From Thermoleophilum album (GTDB lineage: Bacteria > Actinomycetota > Thermoleophilia > Solirubrobacterales > Thermoleophilaceae): DNA of 64,000 nucleotides. The translations under genes and the position numbers were made by a program. This document shows positions 7,299 through 35,470 of this stretch, piece after piece. The notes below the pieces were generated by a model that was not told the origin of the DNA, did no database searches, and worked only from the letters and a program-made list of their open reading frames with translations. How positions within the stretch are numbered: the stretch's first letter is position 1; each line of letters opens with the position of its first letter. The stretch lies in the NCBI RefSeq assembly GCF_900108055.1, contig NZ_FNWJ01000001.1, positions 124,001 to 188,000 on the forward strand, written 5' to 3'.

Positions 7299-7330
7299 CT
7301 GAGTCGCTTAGCCCGAACGGCGGGATGTGG

Positions 7331-7351
7331 TACGAATGAGGACGTGCCCCC
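7331..7351 (+). promoter_or_regulatory. Shared start-region motif: TACGAAT box plus GTGCCCCCA
   Basis: TACGAAT at 7331-7337 is followed after 6 bases by the GTG at 7344 and a run of five C at 7347-7351. The ten bases TACGAATGAG recur exactly upstream of the sugar-phosphate transferase at 21599. The GTGCCCCCA string recurs at 13325 and 28996. This looks like a -10 box and initially transcribed region of a leaderless mRNA. Confidence 0.5.
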
Positions 7352-7868: not shown

Positions 7869-7884
7869 GCGGGCGCGAAGCCCG

Positions 7885-9929: not shown

Positions 9930-9933
9930 GACC

Positions 9934-18559: not shown

Positions 18560-18595
18560 TAAGTTCGCTACGACCCCACCGTGGAATCTGCCCCC
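18560..18595 (+). promoter_or_regulatory. Promoter with C-tract leader of the first sugar-phosphate transferase
   Basis: TAAGTT at 18560-18565, 7 bases, then CCCCACC and the GTG at 18581; a second C-tract (CCCCCAC) lies at 18591. The string TTA(A/G)GTTCGCT is shared with the promoter at 20188. Layout matches that at 21577, which drives the second transferase of this type. Confidence 0.5.
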
Positions 18596-20187: not shown

Positions 20188-20208
20188 TAGGTTCGCTTTT
20201 ATGCCCCC
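20188..20208 (+). promoter_or_regulatory. Shared start-region motif: TAGGTT box plus ATGCCCCC
   Basis: TAGGTT at 20188-20193, 7 bases, then the ATG at 20201 directly followed by five C. This gives a leaderless mRNA. The sequence TTAGGTTCGCT nearly repeats that at 18559. Confidence 0.55.
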
Positions 20209-21466
20209 GCTAGCGTCCCCCTCACCCTCCCAATCCCCGTCGAACCCACGTATCCGACGCATCTCACGGGTGCTACAGCGCCCGCCCCGCCTGCTCGTGC
20301 TGGGCACCTTGATCGGCGGTCTGCTCGCTACGGGCTTGGCCGCGCCCGCCGTAGCGGCAAAACGCAGGGTCCCCTTCGGGTTTTTGGGCAGCGTGGTACC
20401 GCCGGAGATGTTCTCGGTTCCGGAGTCGGTGCTCGACCGTCAGTTCGCGCTAATGGCGCGTTCGGGTGTGGAGTCGGTGCGCCTTACCTTCGATTGGGGC
20501 TCGCTGGAGCCGACCCCGGGCAGCTACTCGCTGACCGAGGTCGACAAGCTCGTACGCAGCGCAAGTCGCTCCCGGCTACAGATCATCCTCAACGTTTCCG
20601 GCACGCCGTGCTGGGCTTCGAGCGCCCCGCTCGATCCCGAGTGCCGGCGGTTCCCGCCGAGCGACGCTAATCGCGTGCGCTTCGCCGCCTTGATGACGCT
20701 CTTGGTGCGCCGCTATGGCAGCAACGGCGAGTTTTGGCGAGAGAACCGTGCGGTGCCGCGCAATCCGATCACGCTGTGGCAGATCTGGAACGAGCAGACA
20801 GCGCCTTGGCACTGGCAGGAATCCCCGTGGGCACCGGGGTACGCGCGCCTGCTGCGCGCGACCTATCCGCAGATCAAAAGCGTCGACCGCCGGGCTCGCG
20901 TGATCGCCGGCTCGCTGGTCGCTTATGGCCGCTCGTACAACCCTTGGGACGCCGTCCGTGACCTCTACCGCGCCGGCGCGCGGCAGTACTTCGACGCGAT
21001 CTCGGTGCATCCGTTTACCAACGATCCGCGCTCCGTCGCCAAGACCGCCTGGCAGACCACAGAGATCCTGCGGCGCGTGCGCCAACGCATGGACCAGGCT
21101 GGCGATCGCAAAAAGCCGCTGCTTGTGACCGAGATCACCTGGCCGGCCGGCAAGGGTAAGGTGCCGCGGCAGGCCCGTTTCTACATGGAGGTCACGCCAC
21201 GCCAGCAAGCAGAGCGCATGCGGGCCGCCTTCCTCCGGCTGGCCGCGTGGCGTAAGCGGCTCCGCCTCACTCATGTTCAGTGGTACACGTGGGCCACCGC
21301 TTACGACCCGGTCGGTCCCGCGACCGTGATGCTGTTCCGCTACTCGGGTCTCACACAGATGCGCGGAACGAGCTTCAAGCCGATGCCGATCTTGGGCACC
21401 TACCGGTCGCTCGCCGCGCAACTCGAGGGCTGCCGCAAGGGCGACGACGCGCGGCGCTGTCGCTGA
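20201..21466 (+). CDS. Exported glycoside-hydrolase-like protein (GH39/GH5 clan A type)
   Basis: The 421-residue protein has an N-terminal basic segment and signal helix (LLVLGTLIGGLLATGLAAPAVAA). A predicted TIM-barrel domain starts at RVPFGFLGSVVPPEMF. LMARSGVESVRLTFDW and ITLWQIWNEQ (acid/base Glu near residue 196) are followed by LLVTEITWPAGKG (nucleophile Glu near 310), as expected for retaining clan A hydrolases such as PslG. The substrate is unknown; the context suggests cleavage or trimming of the polysaccharide made by this locus. Three related proteins lie at 27543, 30335 and 31647. It lies between the two sugar-phosphate transferase genes and has its own promoter motif. Confidence 0.75.
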   Translation: MPPLASPSPSQSPSNPRIRRISRVLQRPPRLLVLGTLIGGLLATGLAAPAVAAKRRVPFGFLGSVVPPEMFSVPESVLDRQFALMARSGVESVRLTFDWGSLEPTPGSYSLTEVDKLVRSASRSRLQIILNVSGTPCWASSAPLDPECRRFPPSDANRVRFAALMTLLVRRYGSNGEFWRENRAVPRNPITLWQIWNEQTAPWHWQESPWAPGYARLLRATYPQIKSVDRRARVIAGSLVAYGRSYNPWDAVRDLYRAGARQYFDAISVHPFTNDPRSVAKTAWQTTEILRRVRQRMDQAGDRKKPLLVTEITWPAGKGKVPRQARFYMEVTPRQQAERMRAAFLRLAAWRKRLRLTHVQWYTWATAYDPVGPATVMLFRYSGLTQMRGTSFKPMPILGTYRSLAAQLEGCRKGDDARRCR

Positions 21467-21576
21467 CCGCAGCGACCGCCGCTTCGGCACGCTCGCCCGG
21501 GCGCTTAGCGCTCGCAGCGCGCGCAAGGAAGCTCGAAAAAACGCCTAGAGGACTGGAATCAGGCCACTAGCTGCGT

Positions 21577-21598
21577 TACGAATGAGAGCGCCCCCACC
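21577..21598 (+). promoter_or_regulatory. Promoter with C-tract leader of the second sugar-phosphate transferase
   Basis: TACGAAT at 21577-21583, 7 bases, then CCCCCACC directly before the ATG at 21599. Here the C-tract lies outside the coding sequence, which shows that the conserved element is a nucleotide signal and not just a shared protein start. Confidence 0.55.
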
Positions 21599-23056
21599 AT
21601 GACCGACGCGACCCGCACCCGCAGTCGGGAACGGCACAAGCTCGCCCCCGGTTATCCGGCGCTCGGCCAGCCGCCTCTGCGCCGTGCGCTCGCGCGAACC
21701 TCCTTCTATCGCCGGCTGCTGCTCGTCGTCGGGGATGTCGCTGCCGTGCTGATCTGGGTCGGCCTGCTAGCGAGCGTGACCGGCCGCGCACCGACGTTGC
21801 CGGTCTGGTTCGCCGGCGCGGGGCTGGTCCCGTTGGTCGCGAAGCTCGCGGGTCTCTACGCCCGCGAACCGCTTGTGCTCAACCACGCGACGCTCGACGA
21901 GGTGCCGCGGATCGCCGCCGTCGCGGCCGTGGTGGTGCTGGCGCTGGGCGCGTCGCTCGGCGTGTCATCGGGGGCCCCGGGGCTCGCGGCGGGGGCGGCC
22001 CTCGTCGCCAGCGTCGCCGTCGCGCGCTTGGCCGTGCGGCGCGCCGGGCGCGCCTTGACGGCTCCTGAGCGGGTGCTCGTCGTGGGCGACGGACCCGCCT
22101 ACGCGCTGTTGAAACGCAAGGTGAACGGGGATCCACGACTGAACGTCGCTTTGGTCGGCCGACTCGGGCGGGAGTCCGAGCCGCGCGCGATCGCGGATCG
22201 CCGGCTAGGCGCACCCAATGACCTCGAAGCGGTGGCGCTGACGCGACACATCGACCGCGTCGTTTTGGCTCCGGGTGAGTTAGCTGCCGGCGAGCTCGAC
22301 GATCTTCTGCGCCGCGCACACGCGCTCGGCGTACGGATTTCGCTACTTGCGCCGGTTCCCGCCGCGGCCGGCAGCGCAGCGGTCACCGACGATCTCGGCG
22401 GTCAGGTCCTCATCGGTTTGCGCGAGTTCGGGATCGGGCCGTGCGGGCGTGTTGCCAAGCGCCTGTTTGACGTAGCCCTGGCCGGCGCGCTCCTGATCCT
22501 GCTGGCGCCCCTCATGGGACTGATCGCGCTGGCTATCAAGTGCAGCTCGCGCGGGCCCGTGCTGTTCCGACAGATCCGCGTCGGCAAAGACGGCAGGCGA
22601 TTCGAGATCTTCAAGTTCCGCACGATGTTCGAAGGAGCTGATGAGCTCAAGCCTCTGTTGAGCGCCCTCAACCAGGCTGCGCCGCTCTTCAAGATCGCCA
22701 ACGATCCGCGGACCACTCCGGTCGGGCGGCTGCTCCGGCGTTACTCGCTCGACGAGCTGCCGCAACTTTTCAACGTCCTGCGCGGCGAAATGAGCTTGGT
22801 TGGTCCGCGTCCCTTGATCTGCGAAGAGGACCGCCTCTTCAACGGCTGGCAACGCAGTCGCTATGCGGTCGCCCCGGGCATCACTGGGCCCTGGCAGATC
22901 CTCGGCTCAAGCCGCGTGCCGCTGAGCGACATGGTCGCGATCGATTACCTGTACTGCGCGAACTGGTCGCTCTGGCAGGACCTGAAGATCTTGCTGCGCA
23001 CGCTTCGCTACGTGCTGAGCCGGCAAAGCGGCGAGCACATCGGCACTCGCCGCTGA
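21599..23056 (+). CDS. Polyprenyl-phosphate sugar-1-phosphate transferase (second copy)
   Basis: The 485-residue protein has the same architecture as the protein at 18581: N-terminal helices, a CoA_binding_3 region with VLVVGDGPAYALLKRKV, the re-entrant helix LFDVALAGALLILLAPLMGL, and the catalytic domain. The domain has FRQIRVGKDGRRFEIFKFRTM, RYSLDELPQLFNVLRGEMS and LVGPRPLI. The C-terminal part (AVAPGITGPWQILGSSRVPL) is typical of the group. Divergence from the first copy suggests another sugar donor, so the locus may start two different glycans. Its last bases are duplicated in the intergenic DNA that follows. Confidence 0.93.
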   Translation: MTDATRTRSRERHKLAPGYPALGQPPLRRALARTSFYRRLLLVVGDVAAVLIWVGLLASVTGRAPTLPVWFAGAGLVPLVAKLAGLYAREPLVLNHATLDEVPRIAAVAAVVVLALGASLGVSSGAPGLAAGAALVASVAVARLAVRRAGRALTAPERVLVVGDGPAYALLKRKVNGDPRLNVALVGRLGRESEPRAIADRRLGAPNDLEAVALTRHIDRVVLAPGELAAGELDDLLRRAHALGVRISLLAPVPAAAGSAAVTDDLGGQVLIGLREFGIGPCGRVAKRLFDVALAGALLILLAPLMGLIALAIKCSSRGPVLFRQIRVGKDGRRFEIFKFRTMFEGADELKPLLSALNQAAPLFKIANDPRTTPVGRLLRRYSLDELPQLFNVLRGEMSLVGPRPLICEEDRLFNGWQRSRYAVAPGITGPWQILGSSRVPLSDMVAIDYLYCANWSLWQDLKILLRTLRYVLSRQSGEHIGTRR

Positions 23057-23221
23057 CCGCCGTCGCAGGTCGATCGGCACCGGCCGCTGACCGCCGTCGC
23101 AGGTTCCGTCAGTGGTCGCGTAGGCCGGGCGCGAGCGTCGAGTAAGGACTGCGGTTTGCGGTCGCGGGTTCCGGCGGCGCGCCGCGGTTATGTCAGCGGT
23201 CGCGCAGGCCGGGCGCGAGCG
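23041..23221. repeat. Duplicated gene ends in a convergent intergenic region
   Basis: The 30 bases 23041-23070, covering the stop of the plus-strand transferase, recur at 23075-23104 with 28 of 30 matches. The 30 bases 23192-23221, covering the stop of the minus-strand Wzz/kinase gene, recur at 23108-23137 with 28 of 30 matches. A third motif (GTCGC[A/G]GGTTCC) is also repeated. The 136-base gap is thus built largely from copies of both flanking gene ends. Confidence 0.8.
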
Positions 23222-24773
23222 GGCCGCCGGGCGTCCGGCTTCGCCGCAGCGGCGGCGTGCCCTCGGACTCCTCGTCGGCCGAGGCCAGGGTGATCGGCTG
23301 CAGCGAGTAGCCGCCGCTGATCGAGCCCCCGTTGGCCACGACGCCGAACACCGGGACGCGCAGTGCTTGGAGCTGACCGGTGAAACGCGCGGCGTCGGCG
23401 AGACGCGTCTCGCCGAGCCTCGCGACCGCGACAACGCCGTCGATTCCGCGCACGACCGCCACCGCGTCGGCATAGTGACCAAGCGGCGGCGTGTCGATGA
23501 CGATCAGGTCGTGACTGCCACGGATCACGTCCAGTACCGGCCCGATCGCCGACGACTGCAGCAGACTCCAGGGATCCGGAGGCGATCCGCCAGCGGTGAT
23601 CACGTGCAGGCTCCCGCGCCGCTCGTCGAGGCCTTCCAATGACAACGGCGCGACCTGCAGCACGTCGAGCGGCGATGCCTGGCCGCGCAGAACCTGCAGC
23701 AGGCCCGGGGCGGCGTGCAACCCGTGACGACGGGCCAGCACCGGTCGCCGCAGATCAGCCTCGACGACCGCAACCCGCAGACCTGAGCGCGCGGCCGCAG
23801 CCGCCAAATGCCAGGCGACGGTGCTGCGCCCCTCGTCGCGCCCTTGCGAGCAGATCGCCAGCGCCGATAGCGGACGTCCGTTGGTGAAGCGCAGGTTGGC
23901 GTCGAGGACCCGGAACGCCTCCGCCAACTCGGGGTCGAGCAGACCCAGCGGGCCTTCCCGGTTCAATCGACGCGAGAAGGGCAAGGTCGTCAACACGGGC
24001 GCTCCGAAAGCCGCCACCACGTCCTCGCTGCGACGCAGCCGTCGGTCCGTTTGCTCGCGCACGAGCGCCAGCCCGCTACCCAGCACCGCCCCGAAGATCA
24101 AGCCGAGCAACACCGTCTGGATCGGGTCGCCGGCCTTGCCGGTCGGCACGTAGCCGCGCTGGATCAGGCGCGGCACAGCGTTGTCGCCGGAAGCGAGCAG
24201 CTCCAGGCGCTCCAGGTAGCTGGACAGGCGCTGCACCGCTGCCGTCGTGCGTCGGCGCGCCGCTTGGCGCAACTCCGCTCTCACCAAGCGCGCCAGCCGC
24301 AGCGCGGCGCGCCGCTCAGCAGCGCCCGCGAGCTCTTGTGCGCTGCGTGCGTAGAGGTTGGCGAGCAGCGCCGCCCGCTCGGGTCGGCGCGCGCGGGCGA
24401 CGATTGTCACCACGTCGCTGTCGCGACCACCGGTTACGCGGACGTCGGCGAGCACATCCTCGGTCGTCGCCGCGATTCCGCGCCGCCGCAGTGCAGCAGC
24501 CGTGTTCTCGGCGACGTCACGCGACTCGACGAGCTGCTCAAAATCCCGCGCCAGCTTGTCGACGTCGGGCGAGGTGGGAGCCAGCCCGTAAGCGTTCTGC
24601 TCCGGTCCGATGGTCTGCCGAAAGAGCAGCTTGGCCGTCGACTCGTAGTAGTCGCGATTGGCGATTGCGAACACCGCTGCAGCTATCCCAACGAGCAAGC
24701 TGACCACGAACACCAGTGGCCAGCGGCGGCGCAGCACGTCGAGCAATGGGGGCGTCTCGATCGTCGATGACAC
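23193..24773 (-). CDS. Wzz-type chain-length protein fused to BY-kinase-like ATPase
   Basis: The protein has about 526 residues from the GTG at 24773. A Wzz domain (about 1-250) has two flanking helices (WPLVFVVSLLVGIAAAVFA and VLLGLIFGAVLGSGLAL). A cytoplasmic P-loop domain (about 290-490) has ICSQGRDEGRST in the Walker A place, VAVVEADLRRP as Walker A' and DLIVIDTPPLGHYADA as Walker B. Active BY-kinases usually have GKS/T; here the Lys is Arg, and the C-terminal tail has one Tyr instead of a Tyr cluster. It probably controls chain length and assembly with Wzy. The 58 extra residues of the longest frame lack an organised signal and are left out. A C-tract stands before the GTG. Confidence 0.82.
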   Translation of the reverse strand: MSSTIETPPLLDVLRRRWPLVFVVSLLVGIAAAVFAIANRDYYESTAKLLFRQTIGPEQNAYGLAPTSPDVDKLARDFEQLVESRDVAENTAAALRRRGIAATTEDVLADVRVTGGRDSDVVTIVARARRPERAALLANLYARSAQELAGAAERRAALRLARLVRAELRQAARRRTTAAVQRLSSYLERLELLASGDNAVPRLIQRGYVPTGKAGDPIQTVLLGLIFGAVLGSGLALVREQTDRRLRRSEDVVAAFGAPVLTTLPFSRRLNREGPLGLLDPELAEAFRVLDANLRFTNGRPLSALAICSQGRDEGRSTVAWHLAAAAARSGLRVAVVEADLRRPVLARRHGLHAAPGLLQVLRGQASPLDVLQVAPLSLEGLDERRGSLHVITAGGSPPDPWSLLQSSAIGPVLDVIRGSHDLIVIDTPPLGHYADAVAVVRGIDGVVAVARLGETRLADAARFTGQLQALRVPVFGVVANGGSISGGYSLQPITLASADEESEGTPPLRRSRTPGGPLAPGLRDR

Positions 24774-24847
24774 GGGGGCTACCGTCCGATTAGTCGCTAA
24801 CGGAGGGGCTATCGCTTCCTTGCGGGTATCCGCAAGCGCAATCCAAA

Positions 24848-26323
24848 CTAGCGCAGCCTCGATCCGTCGGCCAGCGTCCGCCGGTCGACCGTGGCGGCGC
24901 GCGCAAGGCGACGGTCGACACCGCCCACAGGTGACCCGAGCGCCCACCCGAGCAGCAAGCCGAGAATCACCCCGTGCACGCCGTAGAAGGTGTCCTGAGC
25001 GGTGAGCTGCACCAGGTAGTAGGCAAGAAGCGCGAACGCCCAGGCCCGCAGTTCGCCCTCGTCTTCGCGCAACAGGCGGCTAGCGCGACCGGCGGCCGCC
25101 GCGAGGACCATCGCCACCAGACCGAAGCCGATCGGACCGAGTTGGTAGAGCAGCGACAGATAGCCGTTGTCGGGAGCGCGCAGAGGCGTTTCCCCACGCA
25201 GACGCGAGGGCTCGCCGGCGCTCCCGACGCCGTGGCCGAGGGGCTTCGTCAGCGACGCTGGCAACTGCTCGACCAGGGTTTGCCGACGCTCGTTCACCGA
25301 GCGGTCGCTGCTCGCCGCGCTGATCGTGTGCACCCGCGCGACGACCTCGCGGGCGGCTGGGCTGACCGGGGAGAGCAGCGCGGTCACCGCGACAGCCGTG
25401 ATTGCGAAACCCGCGACCGCCGGCAACGCCCGGCCGCGCGTGGCAACCACGAACGCGAGCGCCCCGGCGATCAACGCCAGCCACGCCGACCGCACGTAGG
25501 TGAGCGCGAGCGCGACCCCGCAGAGCGCCGCGAAGGCCAGCGCGAAAGTTGGGCGTCGCCGCAAAACGAGGGCTGCCAACAGGCCGAAGGCAAGGAGCGG
25601 CGCCAGCGTCCCAGGACTGTTGAGGGTCGAAAAGACGCGCAGCGCCCCCTCTCGCTCGACGATGATGCTCCAAAAGCCGCTGAAGTCGAGCCACGCCTGA
25701 TCCCAGCGCGGTAACCCGGCGATCCGCTGCCACAGCGCATAAAGGGCGATCAGCGGTACCAGCACCAGGACCGCTCGGAAGAGCACGCGGATCGGTTCGT
25801 CGCGCGGCAACGTCGCGCCCAGCAGGAGACCCCCACCGAGACCCGACACGTAGGCACCAAAGGCGAACATCGCTGGCAGCGGCGCCTCGGCGAACCCCAG
25901 CGGCAGGCCGATCGCGAAAGCCACCCCGATGGCCGTCGCCGCGAGCAGTCCGGGACGCGGTATCCGCGCCCTCGTGAGTTCGATCAAGGCCGCCCCCGCG
26001 GTCGCCACGAAGGGAAGCAGCGAGAGCGGATCGTTGGCCAGCTGAACCGTCGTGTAGCCGAGCACGCGGCGGACGCCGGGCACCACGAACCACAGCGCGA
26101 GCAGCGCGAACAAGCCGCGCCGTCGGTCGCTCGCGTAGACGGCGAGGACGGCCACCAGCAGCGCGATTGCGCAGGCCACCTGCGGGTACAGCGGCGTTGC
26201 GAATGCCACGACCAGTGCCAGGGGGAGCGCGACCAGCAAAAGAAATCGGGGCGTCGACCGGTCTAGCCGAGCCGGCTCGAGCGCGACCGGAGCGCTCAGG
26301 CGCGATGCGCGAGATCCCGCCAT
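24848..26323 (-). CDS. O-antigen ligase/polymerase family membrane protein (second copy)
   Basis: The protein has about 491 residues from the ATG at 26323, which has GGAGGAGCT just before it and overlaps the upstream glycosyltransferase gene by 28 bases. It has about 11 hydrophobic segments. The large periplasmic loop is followed by LGHGVGSAGEP and APDNGYLSLLYQLGPIGFGL, the Wzy_C-type signature (the usual H/D-N-x-Y-L element is DNGYL). It may be a polymerase or ligase for the second glycan. The frame open to 26584 runs through the previous gene and is not used. It lies in a minus-strand operon with a GT4 gene. Confidence 0.8.
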   Translation of the reverse strand: MAGSRASRLSAPVALEPARLDRSTPRFLLLVALPLALVVAFATPLYPQVACAIALLVAVLAVYASDRRRGLFALLALWFVVPGVRRVLGYTTVQLANDPLSLLPFVATAGAALIELTRARIPRPGLLAATAIGVAFAIGLPLGFAEAPLPAMFAFGAYVSGLGGGLLLGATLPRDEPIRVLFRAVLVLVPLIALYALWQRIAGLPRWDQAWLDFSGFWSIIVEREGALRVFSTLNSPGTLAPLLAFGLLAALVLRRRPTFALAFAALCGVALALTYVRSAWLALIAGALAFVVATRGRALPAVAGFAITAVAVTALLSPVSPAAREVVARVHTISAASSDRSVNERRQTLVEQLPASLTKPLGHGVGSAGEPSRLRGETPLRAPDNGYLSLLYQLGPIGFGLVAMVLAAAAGRASRLLREDEGELRAWAFALLAYYLVQLTAQDTFYGVHGVILGLLLGWALGSPVGGVDRRLARAATVDRRTLADGSRLR

Positions 26324-27471
26324 AGCTCCTCCATCGCAAGCGCTGCCCGCATCCGGTCGAAGCGGCTCGCCGCCGCGCGCGCGCTCCGTCCCATCGCTTC
26401 CAGCCGCTCGCGGTCTCGCAGCAGTTCCGCCGCCGCCGCGCTCCACAGCTCCGGCCGGCAGGGAGGCAGCAGCCGCCCGTGTTCGCCGTCGGCGATCAAC
26501 TCGGGGCCGGCACCTCGTTCGGAAACCAGCGGCGGTGTCCCGCAGGCCATGCTTTCCACGGTAACCAGGCCAAACGGCTCGCACCAGGAGGGCACGAGCG
26601 TCAGGTCGGCGGCGGTCAGGATTGCCGGGACGTCGTTGCGCGCGCCGGCGAAGACCACCCTGTCGACGACCCCGAGCTGGGCGACGAGGCGCCGCAGCTG
26701 GCGCTCGTAGGCGCGGTTGTCGAAGGCCACCGCTGGCCCCGAGAACGCCACCTCGCCGACCAGCACGAGCTTCGCATCGAAGCCCTCGGCGACCAACCCC
26801 GCCAAACAGCGAATCGCCAGATCCTGACCCTTCCAGGGGGTGATCTGAGCGATCTGGACGAGCAGCGCCACCGAGGCATCGGCGCCGAACTCATCGCGAA
26901 CCCGGCGGGCCCCCGTAGGGTCGGGTCGGAAGCGCTCGAGATCGATGCCGTTGTGGAGATGGACGAGGCGCGCACGACCGCGGGAGCGCCCAAGTGCGGC
27001 TTGCAAGCGCTCGCGGGTGTCGCGCGACACCGCGCAGATCGCGTCGGCGCCGCGCGCCAGCAAGCGAGCCACCAGGCGTCCCGAGAGGTTCGCGGGAAAG
27101 TGCTCGTGGGCACGCACCACCAGCGGCGTGCGATGCCTGCGGCACCACGGGATCGCCGAGAAAGCGGCGCGCGGCGTGTTGGCGTAAACGAGATGCGGAC
27201 GAAACCGCTTGGCGATCCGCGCCAACCGCGAGGCCGCTGGCGCGAACGGGACGAGCGATCGGGGGGTCCGCAGCGGATGCAGGCGGAAGCTCAGTTCGAA
27301 GGCCGGCAGCGCGGATCGCGGGATACCACGTTCGTCGAGCGCCCTTGCGAGCGGGCCGTCGGGCACTAGCACCAACAGCTCGTGCCGCTCTGCCGCACAC
27401 TCCAGCAGGTCGAGCAGAGCTCGTTCGGCTCCACTCATCGCCGCCGTGTGGTTGACGAAGAGAACGCGCAA
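26296..27471 (-). CDS. GT4 family glycosyltransferase
   Basis: The 391-residue protein starts at the TTG at 27471 with VLFVNHTAAMSGAERALLDL, the GT-B acceptor loop with SGAE. The donor half contains VQIAQITPWKGQDLAIR, NDVPAILTAADLTLVPSW and CEPFGLVTVESMACGTPPLV. It is predicted to be cytoplasmic and to act on the lipid-linked glycan. It is the first gene of a two-gene operon with the ligase-like gene. An inverted repeat stands directly before the start codon. Confidence 0.87.
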   Translation of the reverse strand: MRVLFVNHTAAMSGAERALLDLLECAAERHELLVLVPDGPLARALDERGIPRSALPAFELSFRLHPLRTPRSLVPFAPAASRLARIAKRFRPHLVYANTPRAAFSAIPWCRRHRTPLVVRAHEHFPANLSGRLVARLLARGADAICAVSRDTRERLQAALGRSRGRARLVHLHNGIDLERFRPDPTGARRVRDEFGADASVALLVQIAQITPWKGQDLAIRCLAGLVAEGFDAKLVLVGEVAFSGPAVAFDNRAYERQLRRLVAQLGVVDRVVFAGARNDVPAILTAADLTLVPSWCEPFGLVTVESMACGTPPLVSERGAGPELIADGEHGRLLPPCRPELWSAAAAELLRDRERLEAMGRSARAAASRFDRMRAALAMEELWRDLAHRA

Positions 27472-27474
27472 GGT

Positions 27475-27489
27475 TCGACTCGAAGTCGA
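27475..27489. promoter_or_regulatory. Inverted repeat before the TTG start at 27471
   Basis: TCGACT and AGTCGA are perfect 6-base arms around CGA, 3 bases before the start codon. A TTTAGTGG stretch just upstream on the minus strand could be the -10 region, so the repeat would lie in the initially transcribed DNA, as an operator or a small 5' hairpin. Confidence 0.35.
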
Positions 27490-27542
27490 CCACTAAACCT
27501 TGCCGCCGCGGGGGCTCCACCGCGACAGGGGGCGAAACCACC

Positions 27543-28874
27543 TTACTGCGCACCCCGATTGGCCGCTACGACCACCAGGCGCGGCGAACCGTCGAGCGCA
27601 ATGCGCAGAGTGCCGGCCTCGAAGCGAGGCGGTCGACCGACAGCACCACTGGTGGGGTCGACAACCGACAGCGGCTTGCCACCGTCGAGCGCCAGCCGCA
27701 CGCGGAGCACGGGCACGTCGAGACGGCGTTGTCGCAACGGATCCCACAGCGGATCGGTGCGCCAGAGGGCCACCACGGCGCGCCCGTCGCTACGTCGAAG
27801 GAGCAGGCTGCGGACCGTCGGTGGTGCGAAAACGTTGGCGCTAATGCTGGCTGAACGCGCGCGACCTTCTTCGCTCCGCGCCGTGCGCACTGTTCGCAGC
27901 AGGTTCCGCACCGCAGCGAACGCGGGCTTCGGTGTTAGGTCGTAGCGTAAAAGCCCGTAGTGGCGCTCCGCGTCGCGCCCCGCGGGGTCGGGTAGCTCGT
28001 CGACCAGCTCGTACAGGTAGGTGCGCTCGATTCCGTCCTTGAAGAACTCGAGCAGCATCCCCGGCACGTAGGCGGCGGCAACGTCCTCGGGCAGGCCGGG
28101 CTGCGAGGACCGCGCACCGAGGGCGTTGTGGAAGCCCGCTTCGGTCGCCCACACCCGCGTTGGCGAGCCGCACACTGGGCGCAGGCGCGCGATCTCGAGG
28201 GCGACCCGCGCTGGGTTCGCGGGCAAACCGCCGGGATACGGATGAGCGTTGCAGACGTCGAACCAGTCGGCCAGGAAGCCGGCCGATGCTGGCCCGTCCC
28301 AACTTCCGAACGAGGGCCCGACGAACGGCAAGGCACGGAGCTCCGGACGCCCGTCGATCAGCTCCCGCAGGCGCCGCGTGTAGACGCGCAGGCGCTGCTC
28401 CCAGCCCTTTGCGCCATCGAAGTGGTCGAGTTCGTTCGGCGCTTCGAGGGCTGCGGCCGCGCCCCGCAGCTCCGTTGCCACCGCCGCCACTAGCTGCTCC
28501 GCGCTACCGCCGGCAAACCCCGGTGCGCCCAGCGCGAACAAGAAACGCAGACCGTTTCGACGGGCGCGTTCGATCGCCGACAGGTAGCGCCGGTTCCAAT
28601 CGCGCCAGCTCGCTGCGGGATTGGCGTAAGCGTCGTCGCGGAGGTTGCGAACGCCGAGTTCGCGGAGCCGCTCCACTAGCTCGGGCCAGCGCGCGTAGGC
28701 GGTGTCGAAGTAGGCGACGTGCGTGACCACCCCCACCGAGTCGAGGAACCGCTCGGCACTTGCCACCTGCACCCGCGCCGCCGAGCTCGGATCGGCGAGC
28801 GCCAGCGAGAGGCTCAAGGCCAGGAGCAACACGGAAACTCCGCTCGCAAGCGCACGCCACGGCGATCCTCCCAC
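27543..28874 (-). CDS. Exported glycoside-hydrolase-like protein with C-terminal beta domain
   Basis: This 443-residue protein has a signal peptide (ASGVSVLLLALSLSLALADPSSAA). The catalytic-type barrel (about 40-330) has LRELGVRNLRDDAYANP, ALEAPNELDHF with the likely acid/base Glu near residue 145, and VWATEAGFHNALG with the likely nucleophile near 246. The C-terminal 100 residues look like the beta-sandwich seen after GH39 or GH30 barrels (VVALWRTDPLWDP, LRIALDGSPRLVVVAANR). It is the most divergent of the four hydrolase-like proteins of the locus. GTG at 28874 is the start used; no clear Shine-Dalgarno site is visible. It diverges from the second flippase gene. Confidence 0.7.
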   Translation of the reverse strand: MGGSPWRALASGVSVLLLALSLSLALADPSSAARVQVASAERFLDSVGVVTHVAYFDTAYARWPELVERLRELGVRNLRDDAYANPAASWRDWNRRYLSAIERARRNGLRFLFALGAPGFAGGSAEQLVAAVATELRGAAAALEAPNELDHFDGAKGWEQRLRVYTRRLRELIDGRPELRALPFVGPSFGSWDGPASAGFLADWFDVCNAHPYPGGLPANPARVALEIARLRPVCGSPTRVWATEAGFHNALGARSSQPGLPEDVAAAYVPGMLLEFFKDGIERTYLYELVDELPDPAGRDAERHYGLLRYDLTPKPAFAAVRNLLRTVRTARSEEGRARSASISANVFAPPTVRSLLLRRSDGRAVVALWRTDPLWDPLRQRRLDVPVLRVRLALDGGKPLSVVDPTSGAVGRPPRFEAGTLRIALDGSPRLVVVAANRGAQ

Positions 28875-28980
28875 GTCGAGAAGGTCGGCCTGCGGCCGCT
28901 CGAACTGCGCTCGCCAGGCGCGGGCTGGACGTTCCGACGAGCCCGCTCTCTCCTCGCTCGCCGCCAGTGAAGAGCTGTCT

Positions 28981-29003
28981 TAGGGTTTCGGCGGAGTGCC
29001 CCC
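28981..29003 (+). promoter_or_regulatory. Shared start-region motif: TAGGGT box plus GTGCCCCCAC
   Basis: TAGGGT at 28981-28986 is followed 9 bases later by the GTG at 28996 and five C at 28999-29003. GTGCCCCCACC is identical to the start at 13325. Confidence 0.5.
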
Positions 29004-30351
29004 ACCCGCCTTTCCTACACCCCGAACCGCGGGCGGCGGTTTGCTTCGGCGCCGCCTGGTGCGCGCCGGCGCGATCACCTACACGTGCTCGGCGCTCTCG
29101 CTTTCGGCCAACCTGATCACCGGCATTCTCGCGGCCCGTTTGCTCGGGCCGGAGGGCCGCGGCATCGTCATCGCTCTCGCCTCCGGCGTGCAGCTCTGCG
29201 GGTTCCTGTTCGCCGCTGGCGTCGCCCAGAGCCTGTCGTACTACGCGGCACGGGAACCGCAGCGGACGCCGCAACTGGTGGCCGGCTGGCTGGTGATGCT
29301 GCTGCCGCTATCAGCACTCGCCGTCGTCGTGACCGAGCTTTTGGTGCCCGTGATCTTCGCCAGCGAGAGCCAAGCGATCGCGATCGGACGCTGGTTTGCA
29401 CTAGCCGCGGTGCTCGTGATCGGACTCGAGCTGGTCTACGGGATCCTGCTCGGTCGACACGACTACGTCGGCTTCAACCTGGTGCGCGTTGGGCAGCCGG
29501 CGCTGACGGCCCTCGGCTACCTGGCGTTGTGGCGCCTCGAGCGGCTCTCGGTAGCGGGAGCGCTCGCCTCCCTGGCCGTCGCGACCGCACTCGTCGTTGC
29601 GTTCGGGCTAACGCGCGGGCTGCGCGGAACACGACTGGCCCGGCCGGACGTCGCGGTCGCCGCTCGCTCTCTTTGGTACGGGGTACGCGCCCAGGGCTCG
29701 ACGGTCGCCGCGAACCTGAGCGCGCGCCTCGACGTCGCCGTGTTGCCCGCCTTCGTGAGCGCCGCAGCAGTCGGGCTCTACTCGGTCGCTACCAACGTCT
29801 CCCTGATCGTCTACCAGGTGGCGAGCACCTTCGCTGCGGTCGTGTTGCCGGCCGCCGCCGCCGATCAAGCTGGTCGCGCACGGGCGAAAGTGGTGCTCTC
29901 GGCCTGGGCGACGCTGTCGGTGTGCGGTTTGGCTGCGCTGGCGCTTGCGATCGTTGGCGAACCGCTGCTCGGTCTCGTCTACGGCGACGCCTTCCGACCG
30001 GCGATCGAACCCTTGCGACTACTGCTTCCGGGCGCCGTGCTGTTCGCCGTCGCCTCGATCGTGGCGTCAGGACTTGGCGCCGAGGGGCGGCCGTTCGCGG
30101 CGACGCTCGCACACGTCCTGGGAGCGATCGTCATGGCTGTCGGTCTCGCCCTGTTCGCGCCCAGCGGCGGAACCACGGCGGCGGCCCTCGTCTCGACAGC
30201 CTCCTACGCGACCGTGTTTTCCGTTGTGTTGTGGTGGTATGCGCGGGTTACCGCACTGCCGGCGGCCGAGCTGGTACCGACACCACGGCGCCTGCGCGCA
30301 CGCCTGCGGGCACTGACCACGCTGCCAGCTGGCACTAGCGGGAGACGTTAG
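28996..30351 (+). CDS. Polysaccharide flippase (Wzx/MOP family), second copy
   Basis: The 451-residue membrane protein has about 12-14 hydrophobic segments. It begins with a short polar region, then RAGAITYTCSALSLSANLITGILAARLLGPEGRG, the conserved first helix and loop of RfbX-like proteins (residues quoted in parts: ANLITGILAARLLGPEGRG). A later helix has LSARLDVAVLPAFVSAAAVGLYSVA, with its core DVAVLPAFVSAAAVGLYSV. It would carry lipid-linked repeat units across the membrane. It is a separate protein, unlike the flippase module fused at 14409. The last 17 bases overlap the convergent hydrolase gene. Confidence 0.87.
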   Translation: MPPPAFPTPRTAGGGLLRRRLVRAGAITYTCSALSLSANLITGILAARLLGPEGRGIVIALASGVQLCGFLFAAGVAQSLSYYAAREPQRTPQLVAGWLVMLLPLSALAVVVTELLVPVIFASESQAIAIGRWFALAAVLVIGLELVYGILLGRHDYVGFNLVRVGQPALTALGYLALWRLERLSVAGALASLAVATALVVAFGLTRGLRGTRLARPDVAVAARSLWYGVRAQGSTVAANLSARLDVAVLPAFVSAAAVGLYSVATNVSLIVYQVASTFAAVVLPAAAADQAGRARAKVVLSAWATLSVCGLAALALAIVGEPLLGLVYGDAFRPAIEPLRLLLPGAVLFAVASIVASGLGAEGRPFAATLAHVLGAIVMAVGLALFAPSGGTTAAALVSTASYATVFSVVLWWYARVTALPAAELVPTPRRLRARLRALTTLPAGTSGRR

Positions 30352-31543
30352 GTCGACGCGGACGCGGTAGCGGGACACACGACCCGTCGCTGCGACGGGC
30401 GCAGCCGGCCAGCGCGCGCGCTACCGCCACGTACGCCCGGAAGGCCGGTTTGCGCACGAAGCGGCGGCGCCCGTTCCAGGCGAGCAGCCCCGTGTAGTCG
30501 AAGATGTTCTGACGATCCCGGTAGCGCGTGATCCACGAGTACCAGTACACCCGTCGCACGCCGATACGGCGGTCACGAACAGCTCGGACGAGCAAGCGAT
30601 GCACGACTAGCAGCCGCTTGACGACGCCGCGGTCGTCGGTCACGACCTCGCGGGCGTAGCGCGGGACACGGGCGCGCCCCTTGGCCGCCGGCCAGCCGAC
30701 CTCGGTAGCCCACAGCCCCTTGCGACCGTCGCCATGGCGACGCATGACCGCTCGGAAGAGGCGCAAGGCGCGCACCACGTTGGCCGGTTTGCCGGTGTAC
30801 GTCTGCACCGCGCCGACGTCGAACAGCCCCCGCACTCCCGCGTCGTAGAGCGCGCTGAGCTGGTTCCAGGAGTCGTTGGTCAGTCCTGCCAACACCACAC
30901 GCGCCGAGCGATCGGCACCGTGCACGGCCGCGCTGGCGGCGCGCAAGAGAGCCACGTAACCGTTCGGAAACGCGTAACGGCGGAACTCACGACGGTCGGG
31001 AACCGTCCATTGGTAGGGCAGATGTGGCTCGTTCCAGATCTGCCAGTAGCGCAGCGGCACGTACGGCAGCTCGCGGTGCTCGCGCCAAAAGCTGCCGCGC
31101 GGACCGTAGCGGCGCACGAGCGCCGCCACGAAATCCGCGTACGTTTGAGGGTCCTTCGGCGGCGCGGCGACGGTGTCGGCGATACGTGCCCAGCGCGGCG
31201 CGTACATCACGATCGGCACGAGCTCGATGCGCGTCCGGGCAGCCCGCGCCACCACCCGATCGAGCGCAGTGAAATCGATCGGCCCGTCCGCTTCGGGCTG
31301 GGCGAGCGACCAGTTGAAGACGAGGCGCGCAGTCTCCACACCAGCGCGACTCATCAGGTTCCAGGCGGCGTCTTGAGTCGGTTGAGGGGCGGCCTCGATG
31401 CCGTCGCCCCAAAACATCCCGAGGAACCGCGGTGGCACCTGCCTTGCGGCCCCCGCGGTCGCGGCCGTTGCCGCCGTAACGAGCAGCAGCAGCGCGCCGA
31501 CCGCGGCAACCCGCATCGCTTGCTTAATTGCGAACACGCGCAT
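30335..31543 (-). CDS. Exported glycoside-hydrolase-like protein (GH39/GH5 clan A type)
   Basis: The 402-residue protein has a signal helix (VAAVGALLLLVTAATAATAGAA) and then QVPPRFLGMFWGDGI, which aligns with the start of the barrel in the two related proteins. LMSRAGVETARLVFNWSLAQ, RYWQIWNEPHLPYQW (acid/base Glu near 172) and LWATEVGWPAAKGRARVPR (nucleophile Glu near 279) follow. Near the C-terminus VYWYSWITRYRDRQNIFDYTGL is shared with its neighbour, with core YSWITRYRDRQNIFDYTGL. The ATG at 31543 has AGGG just before it. It is the downstream partner of 31647-32840, in a tandem pair. Confidence 0.75.
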   Translation of the reverse strand: MRVFAIKQAMRVAAVGALLLLVTAATAATAGAARQVPPRFLGMFWGDGIEAAPQPTQDAAWNLMSRAGVETARLVFNWSLAQPEADGPIDFTALDRVVARAARTRIELVPIVMYAPRWARIADTVAAPPKDPQTYADFVAALVRRYGPRGSFWREHRELPYVPLRYWQIWNEPHLPYQWTVPDRREFRRYAFPNGYVALLRAASAAVHGADRSARVVLAGLTNDSWNQLSALYDAGVRGLFDVGAVQTYTGKPANVVRALRLFRAVMRRHGDGRKGLWATEVGWPAAKGRARVPRYAREVVTDDRGVVKRLLVVHRLLVRAVRDRRIGVRRVYWYSWITRYRDRQNIFDYTGLLAWNGRRRFVRKPAFRAYVAVARALAGCARRSDGSCVPLPRPRRPNVSR

Positions 31544-31646
31544 CCCTGCTCACCGCTGTCGAGATCGTGCACACCCTGCGCTGACGCCCCCGCTGCTCCC
31601 TAACTAACACCGGCAGCGGCCCGCCGATGCGCCGCGCCCGTGAGCG

Positions 31647-32840
31647 CTAAAGCCTACGGCCAGTCAGCTCCCGTGCAACCGTACGGTAGGCAGCGAGCGC
31701 CGGCATCGGCTCGAAGCGCCAATCCGGCTCGATCCGCAAAAGGCCGCTGTAGTCGAAGATCCAATCGGGCGCTCGGTAGGCACTCGACCACTCGTACCAG
31801 TACACGCGGCCGAGGCGGATCTGGGGATCGCGCACCGCCCGGGCGGCAAGCCGGTAGAGCTCGCGCAGCTGCTTGGCCATGCCGCTGTCGGTGGTCACAA
31901 ACGGACTCTGCCCGCGCGGGTAACGAGCCCGCCCGCGTGCTGCGGGCCACGAGGTTTCGGTGATCCAGAGCGCACGCCGGGAATCGCGGTAGCGACGCAT
32001 CGTCGCCCGCATGTTCTCGAGCACCACCAGCAGGTTCTTGGGTTTACCGGTGAACGTCTGGCTAGCGACGACGTCGAAGCAGCCCCGCCCGCCGGCGCGG
32101 TAAATCTGCGCGAGGTATCGCCAAGCGTCCTCGGTCAGTCCGGCGAGCACCACGGTCGCCCCGCGGTCGGCGCGCTTGATCGCCTTGTAGGCGCCGCACA
32201 GAACCCGCACGTAACCCTGCGGAAAGCGCTGGCGCGACGCTTCCGGGTCGGATCGCGCTACGTCCCAGTTGTTGCGGTAGTGCGGCTCGTTCCAGATCTG
32301 CCACTGCCGCACAGGGCGTCGCGGCAACTCCGGATGTTCGCTCCAGAAGCTGCCCTTCGGGCCGTAGCGCGCGATCAGTTGTCGCATGAAGGCCGCAAGC
32401 GTGGAGGGATCACGGGGCGGCGCGCTTGGTCGCGTGGTGAGCCGCGCCCACGTCGGCGCCGGGTAGATCACAGCCAAGAGGTCGAGGCCGTTGACGGCCG
32501 CGCGCGCGACGACCGCGTCGATCCGTGTCCAGTCCGCGGGCGCTTCGCGCCACGGCTGCGCCTCGGCCCAGTTGAAAACGGTGCGCACGCTCTCGACTCC
32601 GGACCTCGCCATCAACCGCCACTGCTCGTCCTGCAAGGTGGGCGGCGCATCGATCGCCGTGTTTCCCCAATAGACGCCCATGAAGTGCGGTGGGACACGC
32701 CGCCCGGCCGCCCACGCTGAGGCCGCTGCGCTGGCCGCGAGCGCCAACACCGCTACCGCCGTGCCGGCTACCCGCAGCCAGCGCCGGCCTACGCAGGCGC
32801 GAATAAGCGTCGGTCGAAGATGGGGCTGGGGGCTGTGCAT
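31647..32840 (-). CDS. Exported glycoside-hydrolase-like protein (GH39/GH5 clan A type)
   Basis: The 397-residue protein has an Arg-rich N-terminus and signal helix (VAGTAVAVLALAASAAASAWAA), then RVPPHFMGVYWGNTAID. LMARSGVESVRTVFNWAEAQ, RQWQIWNEPHYRNNW (acid/base Glu near 184) and LWITETSWPAARGRARYPRG (nucleophile Glu near 293) follow, then VYWYEWSSAYRAPDWIFDYSG near the end (core WSSAYRAPDWIFDYSG). It is closely related to the 30335 gene, about 100 bases downstream, so the pair looks like a tandem duplication. ATG at 32840 is preceded by CCCCACG and, further up, a TAAAAA stretch that could be the -10 box. The substrate is not known. Confidence 0.75.
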   Translation of the reverse strand: MHSPQPHLRPTLIRACVGRRWLRVAGTAVAVLALAASAAASAWAAGRRVPPHFMGVYWGNTAIDAPPTLQDEQWRLMARSGVESVRTVFNWAEAQPWREAPADWTRIDAVVARAAVNGLDLLAVIYPAPTWARLTTRPSAPPRDPSTLAAFMRQLIARYGPKGSFWSEHPELPRRPVRQWQIWNEPHYRNNWDVARSDPEASRQRFPQGYVRVLCGAYKAIKRADRGATVVLAGLTEDAWRYLAQIYRAGGRGCFDVVASQTFTGKPKNLLVVLENMRATMRRYRDSRRALWITETSWPAARGRARYPRGQSPFVTTDSGMAKQLRELYRLAARAVRDPQIRLGRVYWYEWSSAYRAPDWIFDYSGLLRIEPDWRFEPMPALAAYRTVARELTGRRL

Positions 32841-32894: not shown

Positions 32895-33827
32895 TCAGTT
32901 GGGAATGAAGTAGAAGGGGTTCGGATACTTGAAGGAGCGGTCCGCGTGACCCCCGGCGAGATCGGACACTTGGTCGCCGACGTTGGCGAGGATGTCGAAC
33001 CCTTGGCGCTCGAGCTCGGCCCGCACGCCGGACTTGAACTTCGCGGTCGGTTCGTTCATCGGCTTGTAGAAGGCGCCGTCCCAGTTCGAGTAGCCAACGC
33101 GCCGGAGGTTGTCCTCCCGAACTTGCTTGAGCTCAGGCGGGGTGCCCGTCACAAAGAACACCGCCAGTCCTGCGCTCTTGGCGTAGCGGAACAGCTCGAG
33201 AGTCGGTTGGATCGCTTCACCCCCGAGCAGCGCGCCCTGGGCGACCCCGAGCTGGGAGAAGCCCGTCGCTTCCAGATAGCGATAGTTGGAAAGGCTCGTT
33301 TCGTCGATGTCGAGCACCAGCGCCGGACGCCCCGACAACCCGCGCGGGCGCAACAAGCGCAGGCGGCACGAGCGCACCCGCCGATAGAGGCGCTCACCGG
33401 TGCGCGGGTGACGCACGGATGTCGCGACGTAGCGCGTCGAGCACTCGCGGTCGGTGCGCGCCGGTCGGCGCGCCTCCGCCAGGCGCGCGGCTATGTAGTC
33501 GCGTGCCGCCCGCGCCACCGAAGCGAGGTCTTGCTCGTAGCGTCCCGAATCGTGATAGTCACGCAGGCGCGGCAGGAACTCCGCGGGGGCCGCCCCGAAG
33601 GTGCCCGTCGCCGGCAGCACCGGTAAACCGAGTGCCGTCGGGCGCTCCCCAAAGATCGTCGTGCCACCGAGCTCATAGGGCACCACCTCGGCAGCGGCGC
33701 GGGCCGGCGCGACGACGCCCGCCAGCGCAACCGCCAGCATCGCGGTCGCCAGGTAGGTCACCAAGGAAAAACGCCTGCCAGCTTGCATTTCGCGACCCCC
33801 GCAGAGCTTGCCGTGCCCGACCATCAT
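32895..33827 (-). CDS. HAD superfamily class IIIB acid phosphatase-like protein, exported
   Basis: The protein has about 310 residues from the ATG at 33827, which overlaps the upstream stop by 4 bases. An ATG at 33788 (MQAGRRFSL) would give a shorter signal peptide. After the signal (LVTYLATAMLAVALAGVVAPARA) the protein has LVLDIDETSLSNYRYL, the DxDxT nucleophile motif of HAD enzymes, VFFVTGTPPELKQVREDNL (motif II Thr) and DILANVGDQVSDLAGGHADR (motif IV, core NVGDQVSDL). This is the class B/IIIB secreted acid phosphatase family (PF03767), which removes phosphate from organic phosphoesters. It is the second gene of an operon with the PF04185 enzyme. A longer frame to 34328 is antisense-overlapping and rejected. 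Confidence 0.85.
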   Translation of the reverse strand: MMVGHGKLCGGREMQAGRRFSLVTYLATAMLAVALAGVVAPARAAAEVVPYELGGTTIFGERPTALGLPVLPATGTFGAAPAEFLPRLRDYHDSGRYEQDLASVARAARDYIAARLAEARRPARTDRECSTRYVATSVRHPRTGERLYRRVRSCRLRLLRPRGLSGRPALVLDIDETSLSNYRYLEATGFSQLGVAQGALLGGEAIQPTLELFRYAKSAGLAVFFVTGTPPELKQVREDNLRRVGYSNWDGAFYKPMNEPTAKFKSGVRAELERQGFDILANVGDQVSDLAGGHADRSFKYPNPFYFIPN

Positions 33828-35335
33828 CGCGCCCTTCCCAAAGACGCGCGTAAGCGGTCCTGGAGCTTCGTCGGCTCGCGGAAGATGTCGCTCGGCCGCG
33901 CCGGCCGGTAGTCGAAACCGACACGCTCGAGCCAGCCGGAGCGAACCAGATCCATCACCGGGTGATGCTGCTCGGCGCCGCTCGGCAACGCCGTCGCAAC
34001 GGCGCACGGGCGCGAAACGACTTGCGGCGGGTCGGGCAACGCCGGCGGCTCTAGCCGTGGACGATGTCGCCAGTCGAAGGCGTGCGCGATGTTGCGCGCC
34101 TTCGCGTCGCGCACGGTCAGCGGCTTGAGACCGAAGCGGTACTCGATCATCTTGAGGATCGACTCGAAGCCGTAGACGTCGTGCGCGACGTGTCCGCGAC
34201 GCACCCACGGCGAGATCACAACCGCCGGAATCCGGATCCCCATCTGCCCGAAGTCCTGTGCCGGATCCGCCGAAGCGCGCGCATCCGGTACCCGCGGCGG
34301 CGCTACGTGATCGAAGAAGCCGCCCCACTCGTCGTAGACGATGAACAGCGCCCCGCGCCGCCAGTGCGGCGAGGAAATGAACGCGTGAACGACGTCAGCC
34401 ATGAACGCTTGACCGGTTCGCACGTCGCCGTGTGGATGCTCGTCGCCGGAGATACCCGGCTCCTCGCCGACCGCTCCCCCGAAGTTCGGATCGACGAACG
34501 ACACGCGTGGCAGGGTGCCGCTCGCGCAACGGGCGTAGTACTCCGCGATCGGGGCCGAAATCGCCAATCCGCGGGCGCCCCAGAGCGCCGTCACGGGCAC
34601 GTCGGAGTAGAAGTAGCGGTGCGAGACGCCGGCGCGCTCGAGCGCGTACCAAATCGTCGTCTCCCACGGGAAACCGGTCGGGTAGCCGGCTTGCGGCGGG
34701 ATGCTGTTGTCCTTCAGCCCATAGGACTGGGCGGCATGCATGTACTCGCGGTTCGGGAAGGTGGGACCGAGCAGCGAGCAGAAGAAGCGGTCGAACACGG
34801 TGAACGCCTTCGCCGCGTCATGGATGAAGCCGAGCTCGCCCTCCCGGTAGTAGGAGATCGCGAACACGTCGTTCTCACCGGAGCGCAGGAAGCCGTCCAT
34901 GCGCCCGCCATTGACCTGGACACGACCGCCGTCCCAGGAGTGATCGGGATCCGGGTGACCGCAACCTTGCCAGTCCGGGGCGAGCGGTCGCGTCGGTACG
35001 AGCCGTCCCTCGCGGTCGGGGTATAGGAGACCCGCCTGCCGCCCATCGGCTTTCGGAAGCCAGCCGAGATAGTGGTCGAAGGAGCGGTTCTCCATCATCA
35101 AAACGACGAACGTGTCGACCGGCATGTTCCGCGGGGAGGGCAATCCTCTACGGCGCTCTCGCCGCGCGGCTTCGGCGATCAGTTGATCAGGCGAAAGCGT
35201 TAGCGCCGCCGAGGCCGCGACACCAGCGGCTACCGCAGTCCTCGCGAGAAACTCCCGGCGCCGCAAGTACTCCTGCGGCTGCTCCGCGAACAGCTGCTCG
35301 TCGCGCTCGTTGCGCGGACGCTCGTACTTATCCAC
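33824..35335 (-). CDS. Phosphoesterase family protein (PF04185; phospholipase C/AcpA-like), Tat-exported
   Basis: The 503-residue protein has a Tat signal with RRREFLARTAVAAGVAAS (twin Arg before a hydrophobic core). The phosphoesterase domain starts with FVVLMMENRSFDHYLGWLP, where Glu-Asn binds metal and Ser/Thr-region residues are used for catalysis in this family. Later elements include GCGHPDPDHSWDGG, SLLGPTFPNREYMHAA, HPHGDVRTGQAF, FIVYDEWGGFFDHVAPP and GIRIPAVVISPWVRRG. Members act as phospholipase C or acid phosphatase outside the cell. GTG at 35335 has AGGGGGTG in the leader, and a TACAAT -10 box lies about 70 bases upstream. It heads a two-gene operon. Confidence 0.88.
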   Translation of the reverse strand: MDKYERPRNERDEQLFAEQPQEYLRRREFLARTAVAAGVAASAALTLSPDQLIAEAARRERRRGLPSPRNMPVDTFVVLMMENRSFDHYLGWLPKADGRQAGLLYPDREGRLVPTRPLAPDWQGCGHPDPDHSWDGGRVQVNGGRMDGFLRSGENDVFAISYYREGELGFIHDAAKAFTVFDRFFCSLLGPTFPNREYMHAAQSYGLKDNSIPPQAGYPTGFPWETTIWYALERAGVSHRYFYSDVPVTALWGARGLAISAPIAEYYARCASGTLPRVSFVDPNFGGAVGEEPGISGDEHPHGDVRTGQAFMADVVHAFISSPHWRRGALFIVYDEWGGFFDHVAPPRVPDARASADPAQDFGQMGIRIPAVVISPWVRRGHVAHDVYGFESILKMIEYRFGLKPLTVRDAKARNIAHAFDWRHRPRLEPPALPDPPQVVSRPCAVATALPSGAEQHHPVMDLVRSGWLERVGFDYRPARPSDIFREPTKLQDRLRASLGRAR

Positions 35336-35405
35336 GCTTCACCCCCTGCCCTTCGCTGCCGATCCTCGTCTGCGCGACCGCATGTTGAAAGGACCGGCAC
35401 GGGCG

Positions 35406-35411
35406 ATTGTA
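35406..35411 (-). promoter_or_regulatory. -10 box TACAAT for the phosphoesterase/acid phosphatase operon
   Basis: TACAAT on the minus strand matches TANNNT and gives a leader of roughly 65 bases before the GTG at 35335. No convincing -35 element was found. This leadered promoter contrasts with the leaderless ones. Confidence 0.4.
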
Positions 35412-35470
35412 AACGCGCCGTTGCCGCGCTAGTGGAGGTCACGCGAGGCGCCGCGAGTTAGCCGCGGCGA

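What the first reader, a model, noticed from the sequence alone, without database searches (positions are those of the whole stretch)
20201..32840. Four exported glycoside-hydrolase-like paralogues in one polysaccharide locus
Seen: proteins at 20201, 27543, 30335 and 31647 each have a signal peptide, a clan A-like barrel, an acid/base Glu in NE[QPL] and a nucleophile Glu in TE[ITVA]. Three share an opening of the form (R/Q)VP-aromatic/P-FLG and the same C-terminal pattern. Known: polysaccharide loci often contain one such enzyme, for example PslG (GH39). Four suggests several glycans, several cut sites, or use of the fold for synthesis control. All catalytic Glu are kept, so none looks like a dead copy.
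Basis: partly seen in the sequence, partly recalled or inferred. Interest (0 to 1): 0.62.

Follow-up and report, generated by a model that had tools for sequence, protein, structure and literature searches.

The report
Four PslG-like enzymes beside sugar-polymer genes
A hot-spring-type actinobacterium carries four exported sugar-cutting enzymes, all related to the known biofilm enzyme PslG, inside the gene block that builds its outer sugar polymers; this extends a known kind of partnership and is not a new kind of system.

Summary
The four ORFs are real, have N-terminal export signals and carry both Glu motifs. P1 (20201), P3 (30335) and P4 (31647) are true paralogues: P3/P4 are 51% identical and P1/P4 33%. 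P2 (27543) has no usable pairwise similarity to them and joins only by profile (hhalign 97%, E 3e-11), so it is a separate subfamily. By profile and by predicted fold, PslG of Pseudomonas aeruginosa (GH39) is the best or joint-best solved relative of both groups (profile E 5.6e-30 and 1.7e-9; Z 32 and 30). The Glu pair sits at the ends of strands beta-4 and beta-7, as in clan GH-A. P2 spans PslG's full length; P4's model covers only the barrel. The set is ancient, not strain-specific: all four lie in the same gene order in a congener at 57-72% identity. Relatives carry 0-8 copies, often in tandem and ten-fold enriched near EPS-initiating transferases. The locus has two initiating transferases and two flippase/polymerase sets, so 'several glycans' is credible but unproven; two paralogous hydrolases cutting one polymer at different sites is already documented (GimA/GimB, Actinoplanes). 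P3/P4 adjoin three phosphatases rather than synthesis genes. Known kind, unusual copy number.

The parts
20201..21466 (+). P1: exported PslG-like glycoside hydrolase, 421 aa; acid/base E198 (codon 20792-20794), nucleophile E311 (codon 21131-21133); lies between the two initiating sugar-phosphate transferases
   Evidence: ortholog 72% identical and syntenic in a congener
27543..28874 (-). P2: exported full-length PslG-like glycoside hydrolase (barrel plus C-terminal beta domain), 443 aa; acid/base E148 (28431-28433), nucleophile E245 (28140-28142); first gene of a minus-strand run with GT4, Wzy, Wzz
30335..31543 (-). P3: exported PslG-like glycoside hydrolase, barrel only by length, 402 aa; acid/base E172 (31028-31030), nucleophile E281 (30701-30703)
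31647..32840 (-). P4: exported barrel-only PslG-like glycoside hydrolase, 397 aa; acid/base E185 (32286-32288), nucleophile E295 (31956-31958); tandem sister of P3
18581..20152 (+). initiating sugar-phosphate transferase 1 (PF02397, TIGR03025)
21599..23056 (+). initiating sugar-phosphate transferase 2 (PF02397, TIGR03025)
23193..24947 (-). Wzz chain-length / tyrosine-autokinase-like protein
24848..26584 (-). Wzy-type polymerase/ligase (PF04932)
26296..27471 (-). GT4 glycosyltransferase
28996..30351 (+). Wzx-type flippase (PF01943)
14337..17297 (+). flippase-like N-half and polymerase-like C-half in one frame (assignment by eye; no confident Pfam hit; two separate ORFs in the congener)
5754..12051 (+). 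second Wzy_C protein (5754-7298) followed by GT4/GT2 glycosyltransferases (7885-12051)
32895..37105 (-). three phosphatase genes (acid phosphatase PF03767, phosphoesterase PF04185, PhoD PF09423) directly upstream of P4-P3 on the same strand

Best explanation
The four genes encode exported, PslG-like (GH39-type, clan GH-A) retaining endo-glycosidases that act outside the membrane on the polysaccharides made by this same locus. The locus encodes two initiating transferases and two flippase/polymerase sets, so probably two polymers. P1 (between the two transferases) and P2 (heading the GT4-Wzy-Wzz run and facing Wzx) most likely trim or release growing chains at the membrane as PslG does, setting chain length and output. 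P3 and P4, a tandem pair older than the genus, most likely cut the finished polymer at different linkages for remodelling or turnover. Shown here: family relationship, intact catalytic pair in the right place on a predicted barrel, export signal, conserved gene order, enrichment beside EPS genes in relatives. Inferred: retaining endo activity, substrate, and the division of labour.
For: PslG is the top solved relative by profile of both groups and the top or joint-top by structure (Foldseek E 1.6e-16 and 5e-21; VIA Z 32.1 and 30.3; for P4 another GH39, 5jvk, ties at 32.0). Both Glu align with PslG's catalytic pair in the P1/P3/P4 profile (residues E165/E276 per PMC11912335) and lie at the ends of strands 4 and 7 in both models. 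The whole block from the first GT to the phosphatases is collinear in a congener with all four orthologs. 25 of 80 relatives' copies lie within 15 kb of a PF02397 gene against about 3% expected. All four detectable full-length members in this genome sit in this locus. In P. aeruginosa, PslG hydrolytic activity is needed for normal Psl output (PMC6813494). In Actinoplanes, two paralogous hydrolases cut one Wzx/Wzy-type matrix polymer at different positions (PMC12691653, PMC13390465).
Against: No substrate or activity data. P1, P3 and P4 lack PslG's C-terminal beta domain (P4 by model; P1 and P3 by length). P3/P4 follow three phosphatase genes rather than synthesis genes. About two thirds of relatives' copies have no PF02397 gene detected within 15 kb, although many of those contigs are short. 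GH copy number does not significantly track the number of initiating transferases (Spearman 0.29, p 0.07).
Confidence: 0.66

Rival explanations
1. P3 and P4 (perhaps P1) are nutrient-scavenging hydrolases that digest outside glycans and merely lie next to the EPS genes; P3/P4 belong to an exported-hydrolase unit with the three phosphatases.
For: P4-P3 follow PhoD, phosphoesterase and acid phosphatase genes on one strand, and the arrangement is kept in the congener. Many relatives' copies are not near a PF02397 gene.
Against: Ten-fold enrichment near initiating transferases in relatives. Tandem copies sit next to transferases in other genera (L055, L058, L060, L062). Best relative is PslG rather than a plant-polymer enzyme.
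Confidence: 0.17
2. The enzymes act as transglycosylases that join or anchor chains instead of cutting them.
For: Clan GH-A retaining enzymes can transglycosylate (general knowledge). The locus shows two Wzy_C (polymerase/ligase) proteins, but how the polymer is anchored in this actinobacterium is not evident.
Against: No sequence sign tested here separates this from hydrolysis; PslG itself hydrolyses.
Confidence: 0.1
3. Redundant copies of one enzyme: P3 and P4 have the same specificity and are kept for dosage.
For: P3/P4 are 51% identical and adjacent. Group-fixed differences are not enriched in the active-site strands (7 of 31 against 67 of about 350 positions, counted).
Against: Both kept separately since before the genus split, with 31 group-fixed differences, among them S260/V, F263/Y, S297/G and E350/S on strands 6-8.
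Confidence: 0.2

Closest known systems
PslG of Pseudomonas aeruginosa (GH39; PDB 5bx9, 4zn2, 9g17)
   Same: Best or joint-best profile and fold match of both subfamilies; same clan-A Glu pair; exported; encoded within a Wzx/Wzy-type polysaccharide cluster. P2 matches its full length.
   Different: 21-22% identity in structural alignment. P4 (and by length P1, P3) lacks the C-terminal beta domain. Four genes instead of one, in an actinobacterium, with two polymer pathways.
GimA/GimB of Actinoplanes missouriensis (GH5 by the authors)
   Same: Paralogous exported clan-A hydrolases, gimB adjacent to a Wzx/Wzy-type cluster in an actinomycete; 2-4 copies in species that have them; cut the same matrix polymer at different sites (PMC12691653, PMC13390465).
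   Different: Assigned to GH5 with a galactose-binding-like domain; used for sporangium opening. The proteins here match PF00150 only weakly or not at all.
GH39 beta-xylosidases and 5jvk
   Same: GH39 fold and catalytic arrangement (5jvk Z 32.0; xylosidase profile E about 1e-10).
   Different: Xylosidases score 19 orders of magnitude weaker than PslG by profile; their domain make-up differs.
GH42 / GH5 / GH53 (Pfam)
   Same: Partial hits, mostly to part of the barrel, in some members.
   Different: Only part of the profile, mostly at or below cut-off; no whole-length match for the window proteins.

Membership tests
PslG-type GH39 | Whole-barrel sequence-profile match better than to other GH families | tested here: met
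   P1/P3/P4 profile against PslG E 5.6e-30, next GH39 about 6e-11; P2-type profile 1.7e-9 with only 5jvk (GH39) besides, match mainly over the C-terminal half of the barrel
PslG-type GH39 | Acid/base Glu after strand 4 (NE) and nucleophile Glu at the end of strand 7 | tested here: met
   Invariant in alignments; positions match predicted strands in the P4 and P2 models; PslG pair aligned for P1/P3/P4
PslG-type GH39 | C-terminal beta domain after the barrel | tested here: inconclusive
   P2 aligns over PslG 32-442 (pLDDT 76); P4 aligns only over 39-361 and ends after the barrel; P1 and P3 too short but not modelled
PslG-type GH39 | Encoded within a Wzx/Wzy-type polysaccharide cluster | tested here: met
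PslG-type GH39 | Retaining endo-beta-glycosidase activity | not testable with these tools
   needs purified enzyme and polymer
GH39 as defined by Pfam PF01229 | Score over the curated cut-off | tested here: inconclusive
   No hit for P1-P4; weak hits in 4 of 29 relatives. PslG itself is placed in GH39 by CAZy (PMC11912335)
GH42 | Whole-domain match to PF02449 | tested here: inconclusive
   P1 over cut-off (28.4 against 21) but only profile 6-78 of 376; P3 below cut-off; P2 and P4 no hit
GH5 (GimA/GimB type) | Match to PF00150 over cut-off | tested here: not met
   P1 19.8 bits against 23.5; others none

The most novel reading that the evidence does not exclude
In Solirubrobacterales and relatives, lineage-specific expansion of barrel-only PslG-like enzymes provides a matched set of cutters, one per linkage or per polymer, that is an obligatory part of making or releasing EPS in an actinobacterium, so that the enzyme set reflects polymer structure.
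Probability: 0.17. Interest if true: 0.55.

Novelty: new member of a known kind. Interest (0 to 1): 0.36.

Why it matters
Why polysaccharide-building operons carry a polymer-cutting enzyme is an open question stated in the PslG literature (PMC9075953). A locus with four such enzymes and two polymer pathways, kept through the genus, gives natural test material: matched enzymes of different subfamily and domain make-up against the strain's own polymers. Pfam and NCBIfam miss P2 and P4 entirely, so this subfamily would go unannotated.

Tried and rejected
Pairwise sequence search of P4 against solved structures found nothing real; only the profile did. Direct P2-P4 BLASTP fails, so 'four paralogues' by simple similarity was rejected and replaced by profile evidence. 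GH copy number against number of initiating transferases: no significant correlation. Enrichment of P3/P4 fixed differences in active-site strands: none by simple count. Promoter scan found no sigma-70-like site, and terminator-like sites were fewer than chance, so transcription units are inferred from gene order only. The 12225-13949 ORF was considered as a fifth enzyme and rejected: Arg/Ala-rich antisense frame with no family hit. Literature searches for PslG homologs and for Solirubrobacterales EPS hydrolases returned no papers in the library held.

Full report
What was checked. The window is G000:C1:124001-188000 of a 2.2 Mb, 95.6% complete genome. The nearest named relative is Bacterium HR41 (HRbin41), whose contig carries orthologs of P3 and P4; other matches are Solirubrobacterales/Thermoleophilia assemblies. 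The four ORFs exist as stated, and the two Glu motifs and an N-terminal hydrophobic stretch are present in each.

Relationship of the four. P3 and P4 are 51% identical and P1 and P4 33%. P2 shows no significant pairwise match to P4 (E 0.16), but iterated profile searches started from each of the four converge to the same set of 87 non-redundant ORFs, and a profile-profile comparison of the two subfamilies gives 97% probability, E 3e-11. So they are one broad family in two subfamilies: P1/P3/P4 and P2. The Glu pair is invariant in 29 and 12 aligned members respectively.

What family. Single-sequence Pfam and NCBIfam searches give little: P1 has partial GH42 and GH5 hits, P3 a sub-threshold GH42 hit, P2 and P4 nothing. 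Profiles find PslG of P. aeruginosa as best solved relative of P1/P3/P4 (E 5.6e-30, both catalytic Glu aligned; next are GH39 beta-xylosidases at about 6e-11) and of P2 (E 1.7e-9). AlphaFold models (P4 mean pLDDT 93.3, P2 75.8) put E185/E295 of P4 and E148/E245 of P2 at the ends of barrel strands 4 and 7, the clan GH-A signature. Foldseek ranks PslG first for both; VIA-align gives Z 32.1 (rmsd 2.5, 305 residues) for P4, where another GH39 (5jvk, Z 32.0) ties, and Z 30.3 (rmsd 3.6, 361 residues) for P2. P2 covers PslG 32-442, including its C-terminal beta domain; P4 covers only 39-361 and ends after the barrel.

Anatomy of the locus. P1 lies 48 bp after one initiating sugar-phosphate transferase (18581-20152) and before a second (21599-23056). 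P2 heads a minus-strand run with GT4, a Wzy-type protein and a Wzz/autokinase, opposite a Wzx flippase. Upstream lie another Wzy_C protein, several glycosyltransferases and an ORF that looks by eye like a flippase joined to a polymerase. Thus there are two transferases and two flippase/polymerase sets, consistent with two polymers. P3 and P4 lie at the far edge, downstream on the same strand of PhoD, phosphoesterase and acid phosphatase genes. Transcription units are inferred from spacing; the promoter scan is uninformative.

Conservation. In a congener (G001), the block from the glycosyltransferases to the phosphatases and beyond is collinear, with orthologs of all four enzymes at 57-72% amino-acid identity and codon-position differences typical of purifying selection. 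The tree places P3 and P4 as sister clades that each hold all three congeners, so their duplication predates the genus; P1 and P2 belong to older separate lineages. In 61 genomes (own plus 60 relatives) 42 have P4-type members, 0-8 per genome, often in tandem; P2-type members occur in 8. In a phylum-wide sample the P1/P3/P4 profile hits 27 of 149 genomes, with most of the sampled members of this class positive. Of the 80 best-scoring copies, 25 lie within 15 kb of a PF02397 transferase, against roughly 3% expected; this is a lower bound because contigs are short and the PF02397 list was cut. Clusters of such enzymes beside transferases or glycosyltransferases recur in other genera.

How it probably works. 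PslG is a retaining endo-beta-glucosidase (PMC11912335). Its hydrolytic activity is needed for normal Psl production and it associates with the inner membrane (PMC6813494); loss alters Psl placement and cell chaining (PMC9075953). In Actinoplanes, paralogous hydrolases GimA and GimB cut the same Wzx/Wzy-type matrix polymer at different positions, and species with homologs carry two to four copies (PMC12691653, PMC13390465). By analogy, P1 and P2 most likely trim or release chains of the two polymers at the membrane, and P3/P4 remodel the finished polymer. The family, fold, catalytic pair and context are shown by sequence and prediction; activity, substrate and division of labour are inference. 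P3 and P4 carry 31 group-fixed differences, including S260/V, F263/Y, S297/G and E350/S on strands 6-8, but these are not enriched in active-site strands, so different specificity is plausible and unproven.

Verdict. It is a new multi-copy example of a known partnership (PslG-like hydrolase with a Wzx/Wzy locus), with an under-annotated barrel-only subfamily expanded in this actinobacterial order.

Noticed in passing
14337-17297 +: A 986-residue ORF reads like a flippase joined in frame to a polymerase-like membrane protein; in the congener the two halves are separate overlapping ORFs. Could be a real fusion or a lost stop; no confident Pfam hit for either half.
   Followed up: partly
32895-37105 -: Three consecutive phosphatase genes (acid phosphatase, PF04185 phosphoesterase, PhoD) directly upstream of P4-P3, kept in the congener.
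   Followed up: partly
G000:C2:276679-276921 +: A weak C-terminal match to the P2-type profile with an in-frame TAG, possibly a decayed relative elsewhere in the genome.
   Followed up: no
L055 (G038), L060 (G016), L070 (G010): Tandem runs of three to five PslG-like enzymes, as large as or larger than the set in the window.
   Followed up: partly
1035-5185 -: TylF-type methyltransferase next to a large protein with GT2 and WsaF-like domains at the other edge of the polysaccharide block.
   Followed up: no
40655-43284 -: Squalene/phytoene synthase next to an FAD-dependent amine oxidase/desaturase-type protein, probably a carotenoid or squalene pair.
   Followed up: no
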